DNA from: Nostoc commune NIES-4072
GTDB lineage: Bacteria > Cyanobacteriota > Cyanobacteriia > Cyanobacteriales > Nostocaceae
DNA: 64,000 nt
Reading direction: 5' to 3'
Assembly (NCBI RefSeq): GCF_003113895.1
Contig: NZ_BDUD01000001.1
Coordinates: forward strand, 6,065,244 to 6,129,243
Below, one piece after another: positions 9,454 to 16,205 of this stretch. How positions within the stretch are numbered: the stretch's first letter is position 1; every line of letters starts with the position of its first letter. The notes under the pieces were generated by a model, which worked only from the letters and a program-made list of their open reading frames with translations, had not been told where the DNA came from and did not search any database. Position numbers and translations under genes: made by a program.

Positions 9454-9999
9454 TTATTGACGACGCGAAGGAGCATTTTGACGGAATTGCTCTATTTTTT
9501 GGCGCTGTTCGGGGGTCAACACTGCTTGAATCTGTTGTTTTTCAGATTCCCGGATTTGTCGGATTTGGGTTTTCTGTGCTTCGCTCAGATTTAAGTCACC
9601 ATAACCACCTTTTCCTCGACGTTGACCTGGTTGCCGTTGACCTTGACCTGTTTGCCCCTGAGCCTTACGCGCTTGCCACTCAGCCCGACGTGCTTGTTTC
9701 GCCGCCTCTAACTTGGCCTTTTGTTCTGGGGTGAAAACTGCCTCCATTTTGGTGCGGCTATCGCGCTTAATTGCTTGGATTTGGGTTTTTTGGGCATCTG
9801 TTAGACCCAATTCTTTCCAAGGGCCCCTTTCTTTTTGTGGAGTTTGTGCAAGTAACACGGGTGAAGGAGAAGCTGTTTGGGCATTAACAGCAAAGGAAGT
9901 AGCAGTTAAAGTGAGAGCGATGGCTCCAGCGACTAGCGATAATGCTTTGAATTTCATTACTTGTCTGGTGGGTTTTTCCTGGTTGGATGCCATTATCAT
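9454..9999 (-). CDS. Spy/CpxP-family periplasmic LTXXQ protein
   Basis: Signal peptide (MKFKALSLVAGAIALTLT), then two similar helical segments with the LTxxQ signature: LGLTDAQKTQIQAIKRD with TPEQKAKLEAAKQ, and LNLSEAQKTQIRQIRES with LTPEQRQKIEQF. A Gln/Gly/Arg-rich linker joins them. Spy and CpxP proteins act as ATP-independent periplasmic chaperones or as sensors that restrain envelope-stress kinases. The start may be 9999, with GAGAAATT upstream, or the internal ATG at 9957 that puts the signal peptide first. The gene is divergent from the two-component pair at 10305, suggesting it is that system's target or partner. Confidence 0.85.
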   Translation of the reverse strand: MIMASNQEKPTRQVMKFKALSLVAGAIALTLTATSFAVNAQTASPSPVLLAQTPQKERGPWKELGLTDAQKTQIQAIKRDSRTKMEAVFTPEQKAKLEAAKQARRAEWQARKAQGQTGQGQRQPGQRRGKGGYGDLNLSEAQKTQIRQIRESEKQQIQAVLTPEQRQKIEQFRQNAPSRRQ

Positions 10000-10031
10000 A
10001 AGAATTTCTCTTTAGTAATCACATGAGGAGA

Positions 10032-10055
10032 AAGTCATGGTTTTACCCATGACTT
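10032..10055. promoter_or_regulatory. Inverted repeat, possible operator of the Spy-like gene
   Basis: AAGTCATGG (10032-10040) and CCATGACTT (10047-10055) form a perfect 9-bp inverted repeat with a 6-bp spacer, and a further half-site AGTCATGA follows at 10057. It lies 33 bp upstream of the Spy-like start in the divergent spacer shared with the kinase gene. The response regulator at 11579 has a LuxR-type HTH that binds such dyads, so it is a candidate operator. It could instead act as a 5'-UTR hairpin. Confidence 0.4.
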
Positions 10056-10304
10056 TAGTCATGATTGAATTTCAACAAACATGATTGACAATAAAGAGTG
10101 AGAGCTAGGAATAATAAAATTTTTGATTATGATTAATTTATCAATCATTGTTTAGCTTATTACATAATGTACTTATAGTCTAAATTCACTCTTAGTTCTT
10201 CATCCAGCGAAATTTTTAAATAGTAAAGGCTATCGCTAAAATACCCGAAAAAATCAATTATTAACTTCAACCTCTTAACTTTTAACTCATTTTTAACTGG
10301 AGCA

Positions 10305-11579
10305 ATGTGGCTAATGAGTCATCTAATTCAAATTAAAAAACATCCTTTTCCGTCTCTACTTTATCTAGAGTGGACATTACTGGCAATCACCGCATTGACA
10401 GCCTTTATACCACCTCCATTAAAGCATTTTCGTCCTAAGCCTCCAGAAATATCAATTTGTGGGGCATTTCCAGATTTGTCAGTTTGTAGCATATTACCAG
10501 AACTATCAATTTATAGTCTGATTGTTTTTGCAGTAATGGGCTTAAGATTACCCAGGAATAACCATAAAAATAAGGCAATCTACACAGGCATTGAAATTTT
10601 ATTGATTTTAATAATTGGGCTTTTTGGAGAGAGATTTGCTCGGTTGTTTCCCTTTCTATATATAATTTTAGTGACTCGTAGTTGCCTAATTTTTCAGCTA
10701 AATGGGCGTTTATTCGTTACAATTTTGTCATTTGCCTTATTTTTACTTACTACACAACTAAAATATCAATTATTCAATTTTCAAGCATCGCCACAAGCAC
10801 AAGAGCGATATCGATTTTTGATTTTGAATTCGTCACTGGTATTTGGCTTAAGTTTGGTTTTTGTGTTGTTGATGATGAATGCAGTATTGTCTGAACGGCA
10901 AAGTAGAGAAAAGCTAGCGATCGCTAATGAAAAACTGCGCCAATATGCCATGCAAATTGAAAATCAAGCTACTTTAGAAGAACGCAACCGCATTGCTCGT
11001 GAAATTCATGATTCTTTAGGACATTCTCTAACTGCTTTAAATCTGCAATTAGAAACTGCTTTAAAATTATGGCAAGCTAACCCAGGTAAGGCTGAAACAT
11101 TTCTAGCAACAGCAAAAGAATTAGGTTCAAAAGCCCTAAAAGATGTCCGCGAATCTGTTTCTACTATGCGTTTAAATCCCTTACAAGAACAATCTTTAGA
11201 ACGGGCGATCGCTAGTCTTTCAGAAAACTTTCATCGCTCAAATGGTCTTTTACCAATTTATCAAATCAACCTGGAATATCCTCTACCACCTGAAATAAAC
11301 ACCGCTATTTACCGGATTACTCAAGAATCTTTGACAAATATATCTAAATATGCTGATGCCACAGAGGTTAAACTAGAACTGGCTACGAATAGAGGCAATT
11401 TGCGATTGATAATTCAAGATAATGGTAGAGGTTTTGACTTAGGGCAAAATACTACAGGTTTTGGACTTCATAGTATGCGCGATCGCACTTTAGCACTTGG
11501 AGGTGAGTTTAATATTAGTAGCGCTCCTGGTTCTGGTTGCAAAATTATAGTTAATATTCCCTTAACGAGGTTGACATAA
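10305..11579 (+). CDS. NarL/LiaS-type sensor histidine kinase (HisKA_3)
   Basis: A 424-residue membrane kinase. About six hydrophobic segments span residues 20-195, with no large extracellular sensor domain, as in LiaS/DesK-type intramembrane sensors. Then comes a coiled-coil linker (about 195-222), the HisKA_3 dimerisation box [20 protein letters not shown] with phospho-acceptor His235, and a HATPase_c domain with [15 protein letters not shown] and DNGRGFD. It is translationally coupled to the response regulator by a TAATG overlap. The divergent Spy-like gene suggests an envelope or membrane stress signal. Confidence 0.92.
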
Positions 11580-12241
11580 TGATTAAAGTGCTGTTAGTAG
11601 ATGACCAAGGTTTAATTCGTCAAGGATTAAGAGCGTTATTAGAATTAGAACCAGATTTAGAGATAGTAGGAGAAGCAGAAAACGGTGAACAGGCTATTAA
11701 TTTAGTTGCTGAATTTCAGCCCGATGTAGTATTGCTAGATATCAGAATGCCCATTATGGATGGAGTTGCAGCGACACGAGAAATTCAAAAACGTTTTGCC
11801 AAAACTAAAATATTAGTACTGACGACTTTTGATGATGATGAGTATGTATCAGCAGCATTGCAAAATGGGGCAATGGGTTATTTATTGAAAGATACACCCT
11901 CAGAAGAATTAGCTGTTGCTATTCGTGCCATTTATAAAGGATATACTCAATTAGGCCCAGGTATAGTTAAAAAGCTGTTAACTCAGTTTTCTAATGGTAC
12001 ACCAACCCAATCACAGCCTGTACCGTCTAGTTTAGCTGAACTTACTCCTAGAGAAAAAGAGGTTTTGCGGTTAATTGCTACAGGTGCTAGTAACCGAGAA
12101 ATTGCTCAGGAACTCTACATTTCTGAGGGGACAGTAAAAAATCATGTTACGAATATTTTAAACAGATTAAACTTGCGCGATCGCACTCAAGCTGCGATTT
12201 GGGCAAATACATATTTATCCTATTTGAATGAATCAAGTTAA
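11579..12241 (+). CDS. NarL/FixJ-family response regulator
   Basis: A 220-residue regulator: receiver domain (residues 1-120, phospho-acceptor Asp54 in VLLDIRMP, acid pair DD near residue 8, and Lys in YLLKDT) and a C-terminal LuxR-type helix-turn-helix (about 152-212, [20 protein letters not shown]). It overlaps the kinase stop codon (TAATG), so the two are a cognate pair. Likely targets include the divergent Spy-like gene. Confidence 0.93.
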
Positions 12242-13738: not shown

Positions 13739-14809
13739 ATGAATGCATTACTGCATAATCAAATTGCAGATATGTATGGGCCAGATTTTTTACTGTTTTA
13801 TTGCTTTGTCATTGGGATAACTTTGGTAGTTTGCCAGCAGCTAGTGCAAGATCCAACCAAAAACCAGCCTCTGCCGTTAATTCCTGCTGAACCAGATCCT
13901 TACGAAATCGCTTATTTGCGTTCCCAAGAAACAGGAATCGCCAATGTAGCTTTATTTGACTTGATTGTTCGGGATTATTTGCAAGTCAATGAACAATCCA
14001 TCAGCCAAGTACCAAATCATCCTGATGTATCTCACCTACAGCCTATAGAGCGTGAGGTATTTGATAAATTCTCTTCTTCTTCCACTGCTCAAACATCTGT
14101 TTGGTTGGCAACCGAGAGTATCCAGTCATACAGCAATGCCTATGAAGAAAAACTCCAAAATGAGCAATTGTTGTATGCTTCCCAGTGGCAAGAACGGAAT
14201 ATCAAAGTTGGCTTGATTGGGGCGATGATTATTTTCAGCTTGGGGGGCTATAAGCTGCTCATCGCCTTGGGTAAGGGGCGCTATAACGCAGGTTTATTAA
14301 TCACCATTGGTGTATTATCCATTATCTATTTGCTGTGGTTTGTCAGTAGGCGTACACATCTCAGCCATCGGGGAAAAATGTATCTGCAACAACTTCAAGA
14401 AACATTTACCCGATTGCAGCAGAAGGCAAAGTATGACATCCCTTCTGTATTTGATTACAACTTACTGGTGGCACTCTTTGGCGTTGAGGCGCTAGCTGGA
14501 ACCTCTTATGACTCCTACTACAAAGCCTTTTTTCCACCAACATTTTCTAGAAAAGTTACCACAGTAGAGAGTTCGTCTAGTAGCTTATGCGGTAGCTTTT
14601 CATGCAGTAGCAGTAGCCCCTCATATAGTACTAGTTATCGCAGTAGTAGTTCTGACACTAGCTCCTCATGCAGTACTAGTTCTGGCTGTAGCTCCTCATG
14701 CAGTAGTGGTTCTGACAGTGGCTCCTCATGCAGTAGTGGTTCTGACAGTGGCTCCTCATGCGGTGGTGGTTGTGGCGGTGGCTGTGGCGGTGGCTGTGGA
14801 GGAGGTTAA
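13739..14809 (+). CDS. TIGR04222-like membrane protein with Ser/Gly/Cys-rich tail, probable MNIO substrate
   Basis: A 356-residue protein. A hydrophobic segment (about 17-33) is followed by a soluble domain (about 50-150), two membrane helices (about 157-177 and 184-202), a conserved cytoplasmic part up to about 270, and a low-complexity tail: Ser-rich (278-340) with Cys at 284, 289, 311, 317, 321 and 331, then four CGGG repeats (Cys 341, 345, 349, 353). Proteins with a TIGR04222-type domain are recalled to carry just such tails. The next gene encodes a DUF692 (MNIO) oxidase, an enzyme class that modifies Cys in precursor peptides, so the tail is the predicted substrate. The ribosome binding site AAAAAGGAG precedes the ATG. 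Confidence 0.8.
   Translation: MNALLHNQIADMYGPDFLLFYCFVIGITLVVCQQLVQDPTKNQPLPLIPAEPDPYEIAYLRSQETGIANVALFDLIVRDYLQVNEQSISQVPNHPDVSHLQPIEREVFDKFSSSSTAQTSVWLATESIQSYSNAYEEKLQNEQLLYASQWQERNIKVGLIGAMIIFSLGGYKLLIALGKGRYNAGLLITIGVLSIIYLLWFVSRRTHLSHRGKMYLQQLQETFTRLQQKAKYDIPSVFDYNLLVALFGVEALAGTSYDSYYKAFFPPTFSRKVTTVESSSSSLCGSFSCSSSSPSYSTSYRSSSSDTSSSCSTSSGCSSSCSSGSDSGSSCSSGSDSGSSCGGGCGGGCGGGCGGG
14799..14804 (+). promoter_or_regulatory. Ribosome binding site of the DUF692 gene inside the upstream Gly codons
   Basis: GGAGGA/GGAGG lies in the last Gly codons of the membrane protein, about 10 bases before the ATG at 14815. It decides that start over an in-frame upstream ATG at 14758, which would read the Cys/Gly repeat out of frame as Trp/Arg-rich text. 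Confidence 0.75.
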
Positions 14810-14814
14810 GAGCA

Positions 14815-15648
14815 ATGCTTTCTCATCTCCCTAGTTTAGGCGTGGGGTTGGGTTTTCGAGAACCGTTTAAAAGTGATCTGTTTCTCAACCGTCAGCAGGT
14901 TGACTTTTTGGAAATTGTTGCTGAACACTATTTAGATGCATCTTGGCAAAAACAGCAGGAGTTAGAACTGCTTGCTGCTCATTTCCCGATAATTCCCCAC
15001 GCGATTAATCTTTCGTTAGGCAGTGCTGAAGGTTTGGATACAGATTATTTACGCAAACTTGCAGCATTAATTAAGCAACTCAACCCGCCTTGGTGGAGTG
15101 AGCATATCTGCTTTACAAAAGCGGGTGGAGTCGATATCGGGCATTTATCCCCGCTACCTTATACTCAAGAAGCTGTGGAAGTAGTCTGTCGCAATATTGC
15201 CGAAGTTCATCGCTGGGTTGATGTACCACTGATTCTGGAAAATATCACTTATATGGTGACGCTTCCAGGTGCAGAAATGACTGAAGCCCAATTTTTAGCC
15301 GAGGTGGTAGAACGTTCTGATTGTGGACTGTTATTAGATATAACGAATCTCCACACTAATGCTGTGAACTACGGCTATGATGTCCATGACTTTTTGCAAC
15401 AATTACCGTGCGATCGCATCGTACAATTACATTTTGTTGGTGGACATTGGCATGATGGTGTATTAATTGACAGCCATTCCCAATCCACACCAGTGGAAGT
15501 CTGGCAACTGATGGAAGAAGTTGTTGCCCGTGTTCCAGTTAAAGGGATTATCCTAGAACGAGATGAAAACTTGCCACCCTTTGCAGAATTGACAAAAGAA
15601 CTGCAAAAAGCACGGGAAATTAGCAGGAGTAATGCCAGATGGGGTTAG
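14815..15648 (+). CDS. DUF692 multinuclear non-haem iron oxidase (MNIO)
   Basis: A 277-residue TIM-barrel metalloenzyme of the family that includes MbnB, TglH, ChrH and bufferin-type enzymes, which use two or three iron ions to modify Cys residues of ribosomal peptides. Likely metal ligands are visible: His62 (IPHAINLSLG), Glu96-His97 (WWSEHICF), Glu142-Asn143 (LENITYM), Asp175 and His180 (LLLDITNLHTNAVN), His206 and His211 (LHFVGGHWHDG) and Glu248 (ILERDEN). It starts 5 bp after the stop of the Cys-tail protein and overlaps the next gene by 10 bp, so the three are one operon. The exact chemistry is unknown. Confidence 0.88.
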   Translation: MLSHLPSLGVGLGFREPFKSDLFLNRQQVDFLEIVAEHYLDASWQKQQELELLAAHFPIIPHAINLSLGSAEGLDTDYLRKLAALIKQLNPPWWSEHICFTKAGGVDIGHLSPLPYTQEAVEVVCRNIAEVHRWVDVPLILENITYMVTLPGAEMTEAQFLAEVVERSDCGLLLDITNLHTNAVNYGYDVHDFLQQLPCDRIVQLHFVGGHWHDGVLIDSHSQSTPVEVWQLMEEVVARVPVKGIILERDENLPPFAELTKELQKAREISRSNARWG

Positions 15649-16205
15649 CACAAACCCAGGAAGTTTTAGCCCAACTTTACACCAATACCGATTTGAGAGA
15701 GCGTTTCTTTGCTAACCCAGAAACCGTTGGCGCAGAGTTGGGGCTAAGTTGCGATGAAGCACAAAAGTTAGCTCAACTTTCAGCAAAAGAGGTAAACATC
15801 TTTGCTAATTCTCTGAAGTGGAAACGGTTGGGGGAAGTACGCCAACTACTTCCACGCACTGCGCGGGCGTTGGGTAAAAATTTTACTGCCTTATTTTGGC
15901 GATATGCTCAAACTCATGTACCAAAGGGAATCAAAAAACACAAAGAAGATGCGATCGCTTTTGCTAATTTTATCTTTAAAGTTGCCCAAGAGGAAAACCT
16001 AGATCCATTTTGGATTAGTGACTTGGTACGCTACGAAAAAACATGGCTGTTGGCTTATGAACCTACTAGCCGCTTAATTGTGTGTTGGTTTGGTTATCCT
16101 GTTGGCATAGCGAGTGCAGAGGGGATGAAGCGCCAACCAACCATCGCAATTTGGTTTCGATTCTCAAAGCGATTGCAACTGCGGCATATTGTACGCTCAC
16201 TATAG
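15639..16205 (+). CDS. Partner protein of the DUF692 enzyme
   Basis: A 188-residue protein overlapping the MNIO gene by 10 bp. The N-terminal half has the text LYTNTDLRERFFANPETVGAELGL, reminiscent of partner proteins (MbnC/BufC-like) that dock precursor peptides onto MNIO enzymes; the rest is helical (WKRLGEVRQLLPRTARALG, LFWRYAQTH) with no motif I can name. By position it should be the substrate-recognition subunit that brings the Cys-rich tail to the oxidase. The family assignment rests mostly on context. Confidence 0.65.
   Translation: MGLAQTQEVLAQLYTNTDLRERFFANPETVGAELGLSCDEAQKLAQLSAKEVNIFANSLKWKRLGEVRQLLPRTARALGKNFTALFWRYAQTHVPKGIKKHKEDAIAFANFIFKVAQEENLDPFWISDLVRYEKTWLLAYEPTSRLIVCWFGYPVGIASAEGMKRQPTIAIWFRFSKRLQLRHIVRSL

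What the first reader, a model, noticed from the sequence alone, without database searches (positions are those of the whole stretch)
13739..16205. Three-gene MNIO cluster with a membrane-anchored Cys/Gly-repeat protein as substrate
Seen: a membrane protein ending in a Ser-rich segment and four CGGG repeats (ten Cys in the last 75 residues), a DUF692/MNIO oxidase 5 bp later, and a small partner protein overlapping it. Known: MNIO enzymes such as MbnB, TglH and bufferin enzymes install thioamide, oxazolone or thiooxazole groups on Cys of small peptides. Inference: the tail of a full-length integral membrane protein is modified in place, giving a tethered metal-binding or redox polymer rather than a released peptide. 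No excretion or protease gene is nearby, which supports a tethered product.
Basis: partly seen in the sequence, partly recalled or inferred. Interest (0 to 1): 0.88.

Follow-up and report, generated by a model that had tools for sequence, protein, structure and literature searches.

The report
Membrane protein with enzyme-modified cysteine tail
A cyanobacterial operon pairs a membrane protein that ends in a cysteine-rich tail with an iron enzyme and its helper, which probably remodel the tail's cysteines while it stays anchored; the pairing is already in print, but relatives in which an unrelated radical enzyme takes the iron enzyme's place, and signs that the tail faces the cell interior, are additions made here.

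Summary
A TIGR04222 membrane protein (13739-14809), an MNIO/DUF692 oxidase (14815-15648) and a TglI-like partner (15639-16205) form a tight three-gene unit in a Nostoc-like genome. The central idea is not new: Antoine et al. 2025 (PMC12452194) propose TIGR04222 proteins as MNIO substrates with 'PME-type 2' partners.

Added here. (1) 42 of 46 related loci with enough downstream sequence keep complete MNIO and partner. (2) Each of those 42 has at least one TIGR04222 copy with 4 or more tail Cys. (3) Against exclusivity: 23 of 24 long-form relatives with neither enzyme beside them keep 2-8 tail Cys; 19 of 20 fused-long-form genomes searched have no MNIO. (4) In three loci a radical SAM/SPASM gene stands where MNIO and partner would lie; the tree makes these separate events. 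(5) Charge bias around TM1 favours a cytoplasmic tail, against the published periplasmic proposal.

Most likely: tail Cys are oxidised in place, perhaps to thiooxazoles, giving a tethered metal- or redox-active polymer. Chemistry and function are untested.

The parts
13739..14809 (+). TIGR04222 / DUF2207_C integral membrane protein, 356 aa, proposed substrate
   Evidence: TIGR04222 92.6 bits; PF20990 34.3 bits; AlphaFold2 mean pLDDT 81.7
13790..13846 (+). TM1 (residues 18-36), preceded by 17 residues without Lys or Arg
   Evidence: hydropathy and charge count; helix 14-35 in the model
13847..14179 (+). Loop between TM1 and TM2 (residues 37-147), mostly folded in the model, inferred cytoplasmic
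   Evidence: model; charge counts
14180..14347 (+). TM2-TM3 helical hairpin (residues 148-203)
   Evidence: model helices 148-179 and 184-203; hydropathy
14570..14806 (+). Disordered Ser/Gly/Cys tail (residues 278-356) with ten Cys, proposed modification site
   Evidence: pLDDT under 50 over most of this stretch; tail Cys in relatives
14759..14806 (+). Four CGGG repeats at the C-terminus (residues 341-356)
   Evidence: sequence; columns C341, C345, C349 at least 90% and C353 invariant in 49 proteins
14815..15648 (+). MNIO (DUF692, PF05114) oxidase, 277 aa
   Evidence: PF05114 305.6 bits; BufB model 252 bits, below its cut-off of 310; H62, H97, E142, D175, N178, H206, D219, H221, E248 invariant in 26 aligned sequences
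15639..16205 (+). MNIO partner protein (PME-type 2 / TglI-like), 188 aa
15639..15827 (+). N-terminal helical part of the partner (residues 1-63), perhaps Os1348-like
16008..16202 (+). C-terminal part of the partner (residues 124-188) with three strands, read as a short RRE-type domain

Best explanation
A membrane-anchored, enzyme-modified cysteine polymer. The TIGR04222 protein inserts in the membrane with its short N-terminus outside and with both the folded loop and the Cys/Gly/Ser tail in the cytoplasm. The MNIO and its TglI-like partner form a cytoplasmic complex that docks on the protein and oxidises several tail Cys in place, most likely to 5-thiooxazole (or the isomeric oxazolone-thioamide), without later release. 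The modified tail then serves as a tethered binding site for copper or another thiophilic metal, or as a redox buffer. Shown: gene order, its conservation, protein families, partner fold, tail Cys conservation, a second enzyme type in the same gene position. Inferred: topology (from charge and relatives), substrate identity. Guessed: which heterocycle is formed, and the metal or redox role.
For: 42 of 46 loci keep TIGR04222 with complete MNIO and partner, and each of the 42 has a copy with at least 4 tail Cys. In the phylum samples all 35 classed proteins with MNIO within 1.5 kb have 5-12 tail Cys. 14 of 46 loci carry two or more TIGR04222 copies. The partner has the TglI fold. The MNIO keeps nine candidate iron-site residues in 26 of 26 aligned sequences (iron roles recalled, positions align with MbnB, TglH or 3bww). 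In L084/L175, L176 and L134 the open frame of a radical SAM/SPASM protein overlaps the end of the TIGR04222 gene, with no MNIO or partner in the stretch held; the other two enzymes are 57% and 48% identical to L084's, and the tree needs 3 changes for this label, as many as its starred branches force. Best named relative of two of them is SbtM, a thio(seleno)oxazole maturase; SbtM makes a thiooxazole (passage), the group reported in bufferin (passage). Topology: K+R on the C side of TM1 exceeds the N side in 50 of 60, equals it in 7, is lower in 3; per-residue K+R over all flanks is higher on the proposed inner side in 55 of 60. 19 of 22 assigned long forms have a further hydrophobic segment before TM1, in L003-L008 and L011 with most Lys/Arg before it, which gives the same sense.
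Against: 23 of 24 long-form proteins without either enzyme beside them keep 2-8 tail Cys, and 19 of 20 genomes with the fused long form searched for PF05114 lack it: Cys tails do not require MNIO. Four short-form proteins with 4-7 tail Cys (L022, L186, L205, L208) have neither enzyme in the flanks held; L009 (7 Cys) I set aside as a piece of a frame-broken long form (split match). Cys-less paralogues stand in three MNIO loci, L075, L095, L096; the L095 one is G390's second match, which I had not put in the table, so with it the count is 35 of 36. For L176 the best named radical SAM relative is ACGX, SbtM seventh; no enzyme reaches a curated cut-off. With loop and post-TM3 stretch matched for length, K+R after TM3 is higher in 30, equal in 15 and lower in 15 of 60, so TM3 says little. 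The published authors read the tail as periplasmic. No modification was observed.
Confidence: 0.5

Rival explanations
1. Same substrate, other side: the tail is modified before translocation and ends up in the periplasm, where it buffers copper like a bufferin (the side is that of Antoine et al. 2025).
For: Stated in PMC12452194 from predicted topology and AlphaFold2 models. The short TM2-TM3 loop holds Lys/Arg (mean 1.63 in 4-13 residues), about as dense as the stretch after TM3.
Against: TM1 charge bias points the other way in 50 of 60 and fits this reading in 3; per-residue bias over all flanks points the other way in 55 of 60. DUF2207-type relatives L025 and L028 start with a hydrophobic, signal-peptide-like segment and then a large domain before TM1 (no signal-peptide program was run), which gives a cytoplasmic tail if the shared TMs keep their sense.
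Confidence: 0.22
2. The tail is not the MNIO substrate: its free Cys bind metal or form disulfides by themselves, and the MNIO modifies another protein or another part of TIGR04222.
For: 23 of 24 long-form proteins without either enzyme beside them keep tail Cys; 19 of 20 fused-long-form genomes searched have no MNIO; no MNIO or partner in 20 of 20 long-form neighbourhoods fetched. A few short forms keep the tail without either enzyme in the flank.
Against: The only Cys columns among the invariant or nearly invariant ones of 49 short-form proteins are in the tail. MNIO-adjacent tails hold more Cys (35 proteins, median 7, against 24 long forms, median 5; Mann-Whitney p 4e-6, kinship not corrected for). 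Radical SAM/SPASM genes in the same position are hard to explain if the tail is not a substrate.
Confidence: 0.22
3. The modified tail is cut off and released as a diffusible metallophore, with the membrane part acting as an oversized leader.
For: The characterised MNIO products in the table of PMC12452194 are RiPPs (passage). Tails vary in length and repeat number between relatives, as core peptides can.
Against: No protease or exporter family recurs with the three genes beyond the synteny of related cyanobacteria, and none was seen among the 17 ORFs scanned around the window's cluster.
Confidence: 0.06

Closest known systems
TIGR04222-MNIO clusters of Antoine et al. 2025 (PMC12452194; abstract, section 18 and found passages seen)
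   Same: Same membrane family, MNIO, PME-type 2 partner; Cys/Ser/Gly C-terminal tail; substrate role proposed there.
   Different: They report mostly Actinomycetota and a periplasmic tail. 'Cyanobact' and 'Nostoc' do not occur in the main text, and 'radical SAM' occurs only in two reference titles; figures and supplements could not be seen, so cyanobacterial members may well be in them.
Bufferins (BufA-BufB-BufC)
   Same: MNIO closest to the BufB model (252 bits); Cys-rich substrate.
   Different: BufB cut-off of 310 not reached; no DUF2063 match for the partner at E up to 1; substrate is a multi-TM protein.
TglHI (pearlin biosynthesis)
   Different: TglHI acts on the C-terminal Cys of TglA to give 3-thia-Glu (table in PMC12452194).
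SbtM and ACGX radical SAM/SPASM maturases
   Same: Best named relatives of the radical SAM in MNIO's place in L084 and L134 (SbtM) and L176 (ACGX); SbtM makes a thiooxazole (passage in PMC11002830).
   Different: 127.7-156.4 bits against cut-offs of 350 and 400: a separate family. Not present at the window's own cluster.

Membership tests
MNIO (PF05114) enzymes | PF05114 score above gathering cut-off | tested here: met
   305.6 bits against 25
MNIO (PF05114) enzymes | Conserved iron-site His/Asp/Glu/Asn residues | tested here: met
   H62, H97, E142, D175, N178, H206, D219, H221, E248 invariant in 26 sequences, with alignments to 3bww, TglH and MbnB; ligand roles recalled
MNIO (PF05114) enzymes | Multinuclear iron and oxidative activity on a substrate | not testable with these tools
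   Needs protein
Bufferin system (BufABC) | MNIO over the BufB model cut-off | tested here: not met
   252 bits against 310
Bufferin system (BufABC) | Partner with the DUF2063 Pfam signature | tested here: not met
   No Pfam family at E up to 1 for the partner
TIGR04222-MNIO-PME2 cluster (Antoine 2025) | TIGR04222 protein over cut-off next to an MNIO gene | tested here: met
   92.6 bits against 43; 5-nt gap
TIGR04222-MNIO-PME2 cluster (Antoine 2025) | Partner structurally like NGO1945/TglI without the DUF2063 signature | tested here: met
   [not shown]
TIGR04222-MNIO-PME2 cluster (Antoine 2025) | Cys-rich tail exposed to the periplasm | tested here: inconclusive
   TM1 charge bias and relatives favour the cytoplasm, TM3 is neutral when length-matched; no experiment
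TIGR04222-MNIO-PME2 cluster (Antoine 2025) | Tail Cys post-translationally modified | not testable with these tools
   Unproven there too

The most novel reading that the evidence does not exclude
A full-length integral membrane protein is a heterocyclised 'tethered metallophore' on the cytoplasmic face: two unrelated oxidation systems, MNIO plus partner and a single radical SAM/SPASM enzyme, are interchangeable on the same Cys-Gly tail and install the same kind of Cys-derived ring. DUF2207-type relatives with (CHSA)n tails beside a radical SAM gene (L139, L140, L219) would extend this to a wider class of enzyme-modified membrane-protein tails.
Probability: 0.28. Interest if true: 0.82.

Novelty: new member of a known kind. 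Interest (0 to 1): 0.55.

Why it matters
MNIO enzymes are known as makers of modified peptides. If they modify the tail of an intact membrane protein, ring chemistry known from copper-binding peptides becomes a way to build fixed metal or redox sites on membranes. A radical SAM enzyme in the place of the MNIO pair gives a sharp test: if both give the same mass change on the same kind of tail, the product matters and the route does not. The topology question, inside or outside, decides between cytoplasmic and periplasmic roles and can be settled with standard fusions.

Tried and rejected
Tried without result: promoter and terminator scans gave no more sites than shuffles (2 against mean 5.2, 2 against mean 2.8). 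Foldseek found no good match for the TIGR04222 model among solved structures (best E 0.74), and profile searches found none by sequence (none at E up to 1; best E 0.59). VIA-align gave only middling Z (best 8.9, 81 residues, 2.9 A). A likeness of the long form's N-terminal domain to plant glycine-rich-domain proteins, which I recalled, found no support in Pfam or NCBIfam. Two paper searches brought nothing to the point.

Considered and rejected: that the tail is mere low-complexity drift (C-terminal Cys columns nearly invariant); that the third gene is a second precursor (TglI fold); that the flanking genes of the window belong to the system (K+ channel family in 23, sensor kinase and regulator in 21, deaminase in 20 of 53 loci, the positions printed being all cyanobacterial); that S-formylglutathione hydrolase downstream belongs to it (5 of 53 loci).

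Limits: the protein database could not be searched. Actinomycetota, the main home of TIGR04222 by PMC12452194, were not sampled: the group drawn for L095, whose record is titled Actinomycetota, appears to be Armatimonadota, since its loci repeat L097 and L085. MNIO was sought genome-wide only in the cyanobacterial and the L095 samples and in single genomes. In the samples, 77 matches were over the family cut-off (24, 22, 2, 13, 3, 13); 75 went into (left out: G390's second copy, tail without Cys, and a second piece of the G890 gene), 71 into (cut, masked or tails under 15 residues dropped), 60 into the charge counts. I count L024 as part of an MNIO array although its own flank shows none: MNIO lies further on in that genome. 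Short forms L010 and L204, with 1 and 0 tail Cys, have neither enzyme, but L010 falls among long forms in the tree. The tree's bootstrap had not settled and some rows are long. Alignments used part of what I had: A4 49 of 64, A5 38 of 43, A6 26 of 43.
Full report
WHAT IS THERE. The window lies in an 8.2-Mb genome of a cyanobacterium; the closest named relatives in the scan are Nostoc species (97% identity over the query). Three genes on the + strand form the unit: TIGR04222 membrane protein 13739-14809, MNIO 14815-15648 (5-nt gap), partner 15639-16205 (10-nt overlap). Family scores: TIGR04222 92.6 bits (cut-off 43) and PF20990 34.3 (33); PF05114 305.6 (25); the partner has no Pfam family at E up to 1 and only sub-threshold NHLP-type matches. 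The tail holds ten Cys in its last 73 residues and ends in four CGGG repeats. Each family gives one match in the genome.

WHAT IS ALREADY KNOWN. Antoine et al. 2025 (PMC12452194; abstract, section 18 and passages found by search were seen, not the whole text, figures or supplements) report that 40% of more than 1,000 signal-peptide-less Cys proteins encoded before MNIO genes are TIGR04222, propose subsets of them as MNIO substrates, describe PME-type 2 partners, and read the Cys tail as periplasmic. They also state that more than a quarter of TIGR04222 proteins lack C-proximal Cys and that not all are linked with MNIO. The only other paper found with the word TIGR04222 uses it in passing.

THE UNIT IS CONSERVED. 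A genome scan with five Nostocales sequences gave 52 loci, from cyanobacteria and from records titled Acidobacteria, Armatimonadetes, Planctomycetota, Verrucomicrobia, Myxococcales, Bacteroidetes and others. Of 46 with at least 1.7 kb after the last TIGR04222 gene, 42 have complete MNIO and partner, and each of the 42 has at least one TIGR04222 copy with 4 or more tail Cys; three of them also hold a copy without tail Cys (L075, L095, L096). The four others: L084 (radical SAM instead), L059 (broken MNIO, tail with 12 Cys), L071 (MNIO elsewhere in its genome), L079 (truncated TIGR04222 and MNIO, partner kept). 14 of 46 have two or more TIGR04222 matches. The next most frequent neighbour families are in 19-23 of 53 loci, in the printed positions all cyanobacterial.

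TAIL CYS AND CONTEXT. In six phylum samples (386, 251, 247, 216, 5 and 237 genomes) 77 TIGR04222 matches were over cut-off; 75 were classed by what lies within about 1.5 kb, and 71 had usable tails. Short form: 35 with MNIO, 5-12 tail Cys (35 of 36 if G390's second, Cys-less copy, left out of the table, is added); 3 with a radical SAM, 6 each; 8 with neither, with 0, 1, 4, 4, 7, 7, 7, 7 (L024, with 4, belongs to an MNIO array; L009, with 7, I take as a piece of a broken long form). Long form (170 or more residues before the domain): 24 with neither, of which 23 keep 2-8 Cys and one (L025, DUF2207-type) has none; and 1 with a radical SAM and 11 Cys (L219). In the two samples searched for both families, 19 of 20 genomes with the fused long form have no MNIO match (G360 has); G053, which carries L025, has none either. 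In 20 of 20 long-form neighbourhoods of 9.5-14 kb my MNIO and partner profiles found nothing, and no other neighbour family lay in more than 3 of them, apart from an antisense frame of the gene itself. So an MNIO cluster comes with a Cys tail, but a Cys tail need not come with MNIO.

A RADICAL SAM IN MNIO'S PLACE. In L084/L175 (record titled Desulfomonile tiedjei MAG; no PF05114 match in that assembly), L176 and L134, the open frame of a radical SAM/SPASM gene overlaps the end of the TIGR04222 gene, with no MNIO or partner in the stretch held; exact start codons are not settled. L084's scores 72.3 bits for PF04055 and 38.2 for SPASM; the other two are 57% and 48% identical to it. Best NCBIfam models: SbtM thio(seleno)oxazole maturase for L084 (153.9 bits, next ACGX 136.5) and L134 (132.4, next NirJ 126.8); for L176 ACGX 156.4, SbtM seventh with 127.7. 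Cut-offs are 350 (SbtM) and 400 (ACGX), so the enzyme is a family of its own. A tree of 89 TIGR04222 domains needs three separate changes for the radical SAM label, as many as starred branches force; the bootstrap had not settled. SbtM turns Cys into thiooxazole with loss of four hydrogens (passage in PMC11002830), and bufferin carries thiooxazole (passage in PMC12452194). This suggests one product by two routes; it does not prove it. I saw no mention of radical SAM with TIGR04222: PMC12452194 has the phrase only in two reference titles, and the listings for TIGR04222, YciQ/DUF2207, SbtM/thiooxazole and PF20990 showed nothing on it by title or opening lines.

TOPOLOGY. The short form has a 17-residue N-terminus without Lys/Arg, TM1, a loop of about 110 residues that folds in the model, a TM2-TM3 hairpin and the tail. 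In 60 proteins where the segments could be assigned, mean K+R was 0.48 in the 15 residues before TM1, 2.35 after it, 2.35 before TM2, 1.63 in the TM2-TM3 loop (4-13 residues) and 3.75 in the 15 residues after TM3. The C side of TM1 exceeded its N side in 50, equalled it in 7, fell below in 3. After TM3 the 15-residue count exceeded the loop in 50, but matched for length only in 30, with 15 equal and 15 lower, so TM3 is nearly neutral. Per residue over all flanks, the proposed inner side is richer in 55 of 60. DUF2207-type relatives L025 and L028 have a hydrophobic start and a large domain before TM1, and 19 of 22 assigned long forms have a further hydrophobic segment before TM1. This leans to a cytoplasmic loop and tail, where the MNIO is. 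The published periplasmic reading remains possible.

HOW IT MOST LIKELY WORKS. The MNIO-partner complex meets the tail in the cytoplasm, either as the protein is made or after insertion, and oxidises several Cys. The product stays on the membrane. A role in metal or redox chemistry is inferred from bufferins and methanobactins, not from data on this family. The long form shows that the tail can be useful without MNIO, either with free Cys or with another enzyme elsewhere in the genome.

VERDICT. A sound observation of a class already proposed in print. What I add is wide synteny, the tail-Cys count by context, the radical SAM in MNIO's place and the topology argument. After the recount the odds of the periplasmic rival went up slightly (0.20 to 0.22) and those of the novel case down slightly (0.30 to 0.28), because TM3 turned out nearly neutral and a Cys-less copy had been left out; the odds of release went from 0.08 to 0.06 so that the four stay within one.

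Noticed in passing
L139:664-2412, L140:333-2114, L219:1-2331: DUF2207-type membrane proteins (TIGR04222 below or just at its cut-off) that end in (CHSA)n Cys repeats, each with a radical SAM match on the same strand in a frame that runs past the gene's end. The tail differs from the Cys/Gly type but the arrangement is alike.
   Followed up: partly
L083:7252-7995, L084:7247-7990, L089:6972-7985, L102:8955-9743, L205:530-1360, L208:2279-3043 (-), L022:2232-3020 (-): A nucleotidyltransferase-like gene (sub-threshold PF01909 in L084; the first four form one BLAST family; the last three judged by eye) lies beside TIGR04222 in several non-cyanobacterial-type loci, also where no MNIO is in the flank.
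   Followed up: partly
[not shown]
   Followed up: partly
L075:8997-9785, L095:8954-9850, L096:10429-11142: TIGR04222 paralogues without tail Cys lie in MNIO loci together with tailed copies.
   Followed up: partly
long forms, e.g. L003, L006, L007, L008, L011: The extra hydrophobic segment before TM1 ends in a lipobox-like motif ([LVI][TA][SGA]C) although it lies about 150-240 residues from the start. Motif recalled.
   Followed up: no
window 9454-12241: Sensor kinase, response regulator and an LTXXQ-family protein upstream keep their place in 19-21 of 53 related loci; probably shared synteny.
   Followed up: partly
L059 and L079: Clusters with a broken MNIO gene; in L059 the TIGR04222 tail is intact with 12 Cys, in L079 the TIGR04222 gene is truncated and the partner kept.
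   Followed up: no
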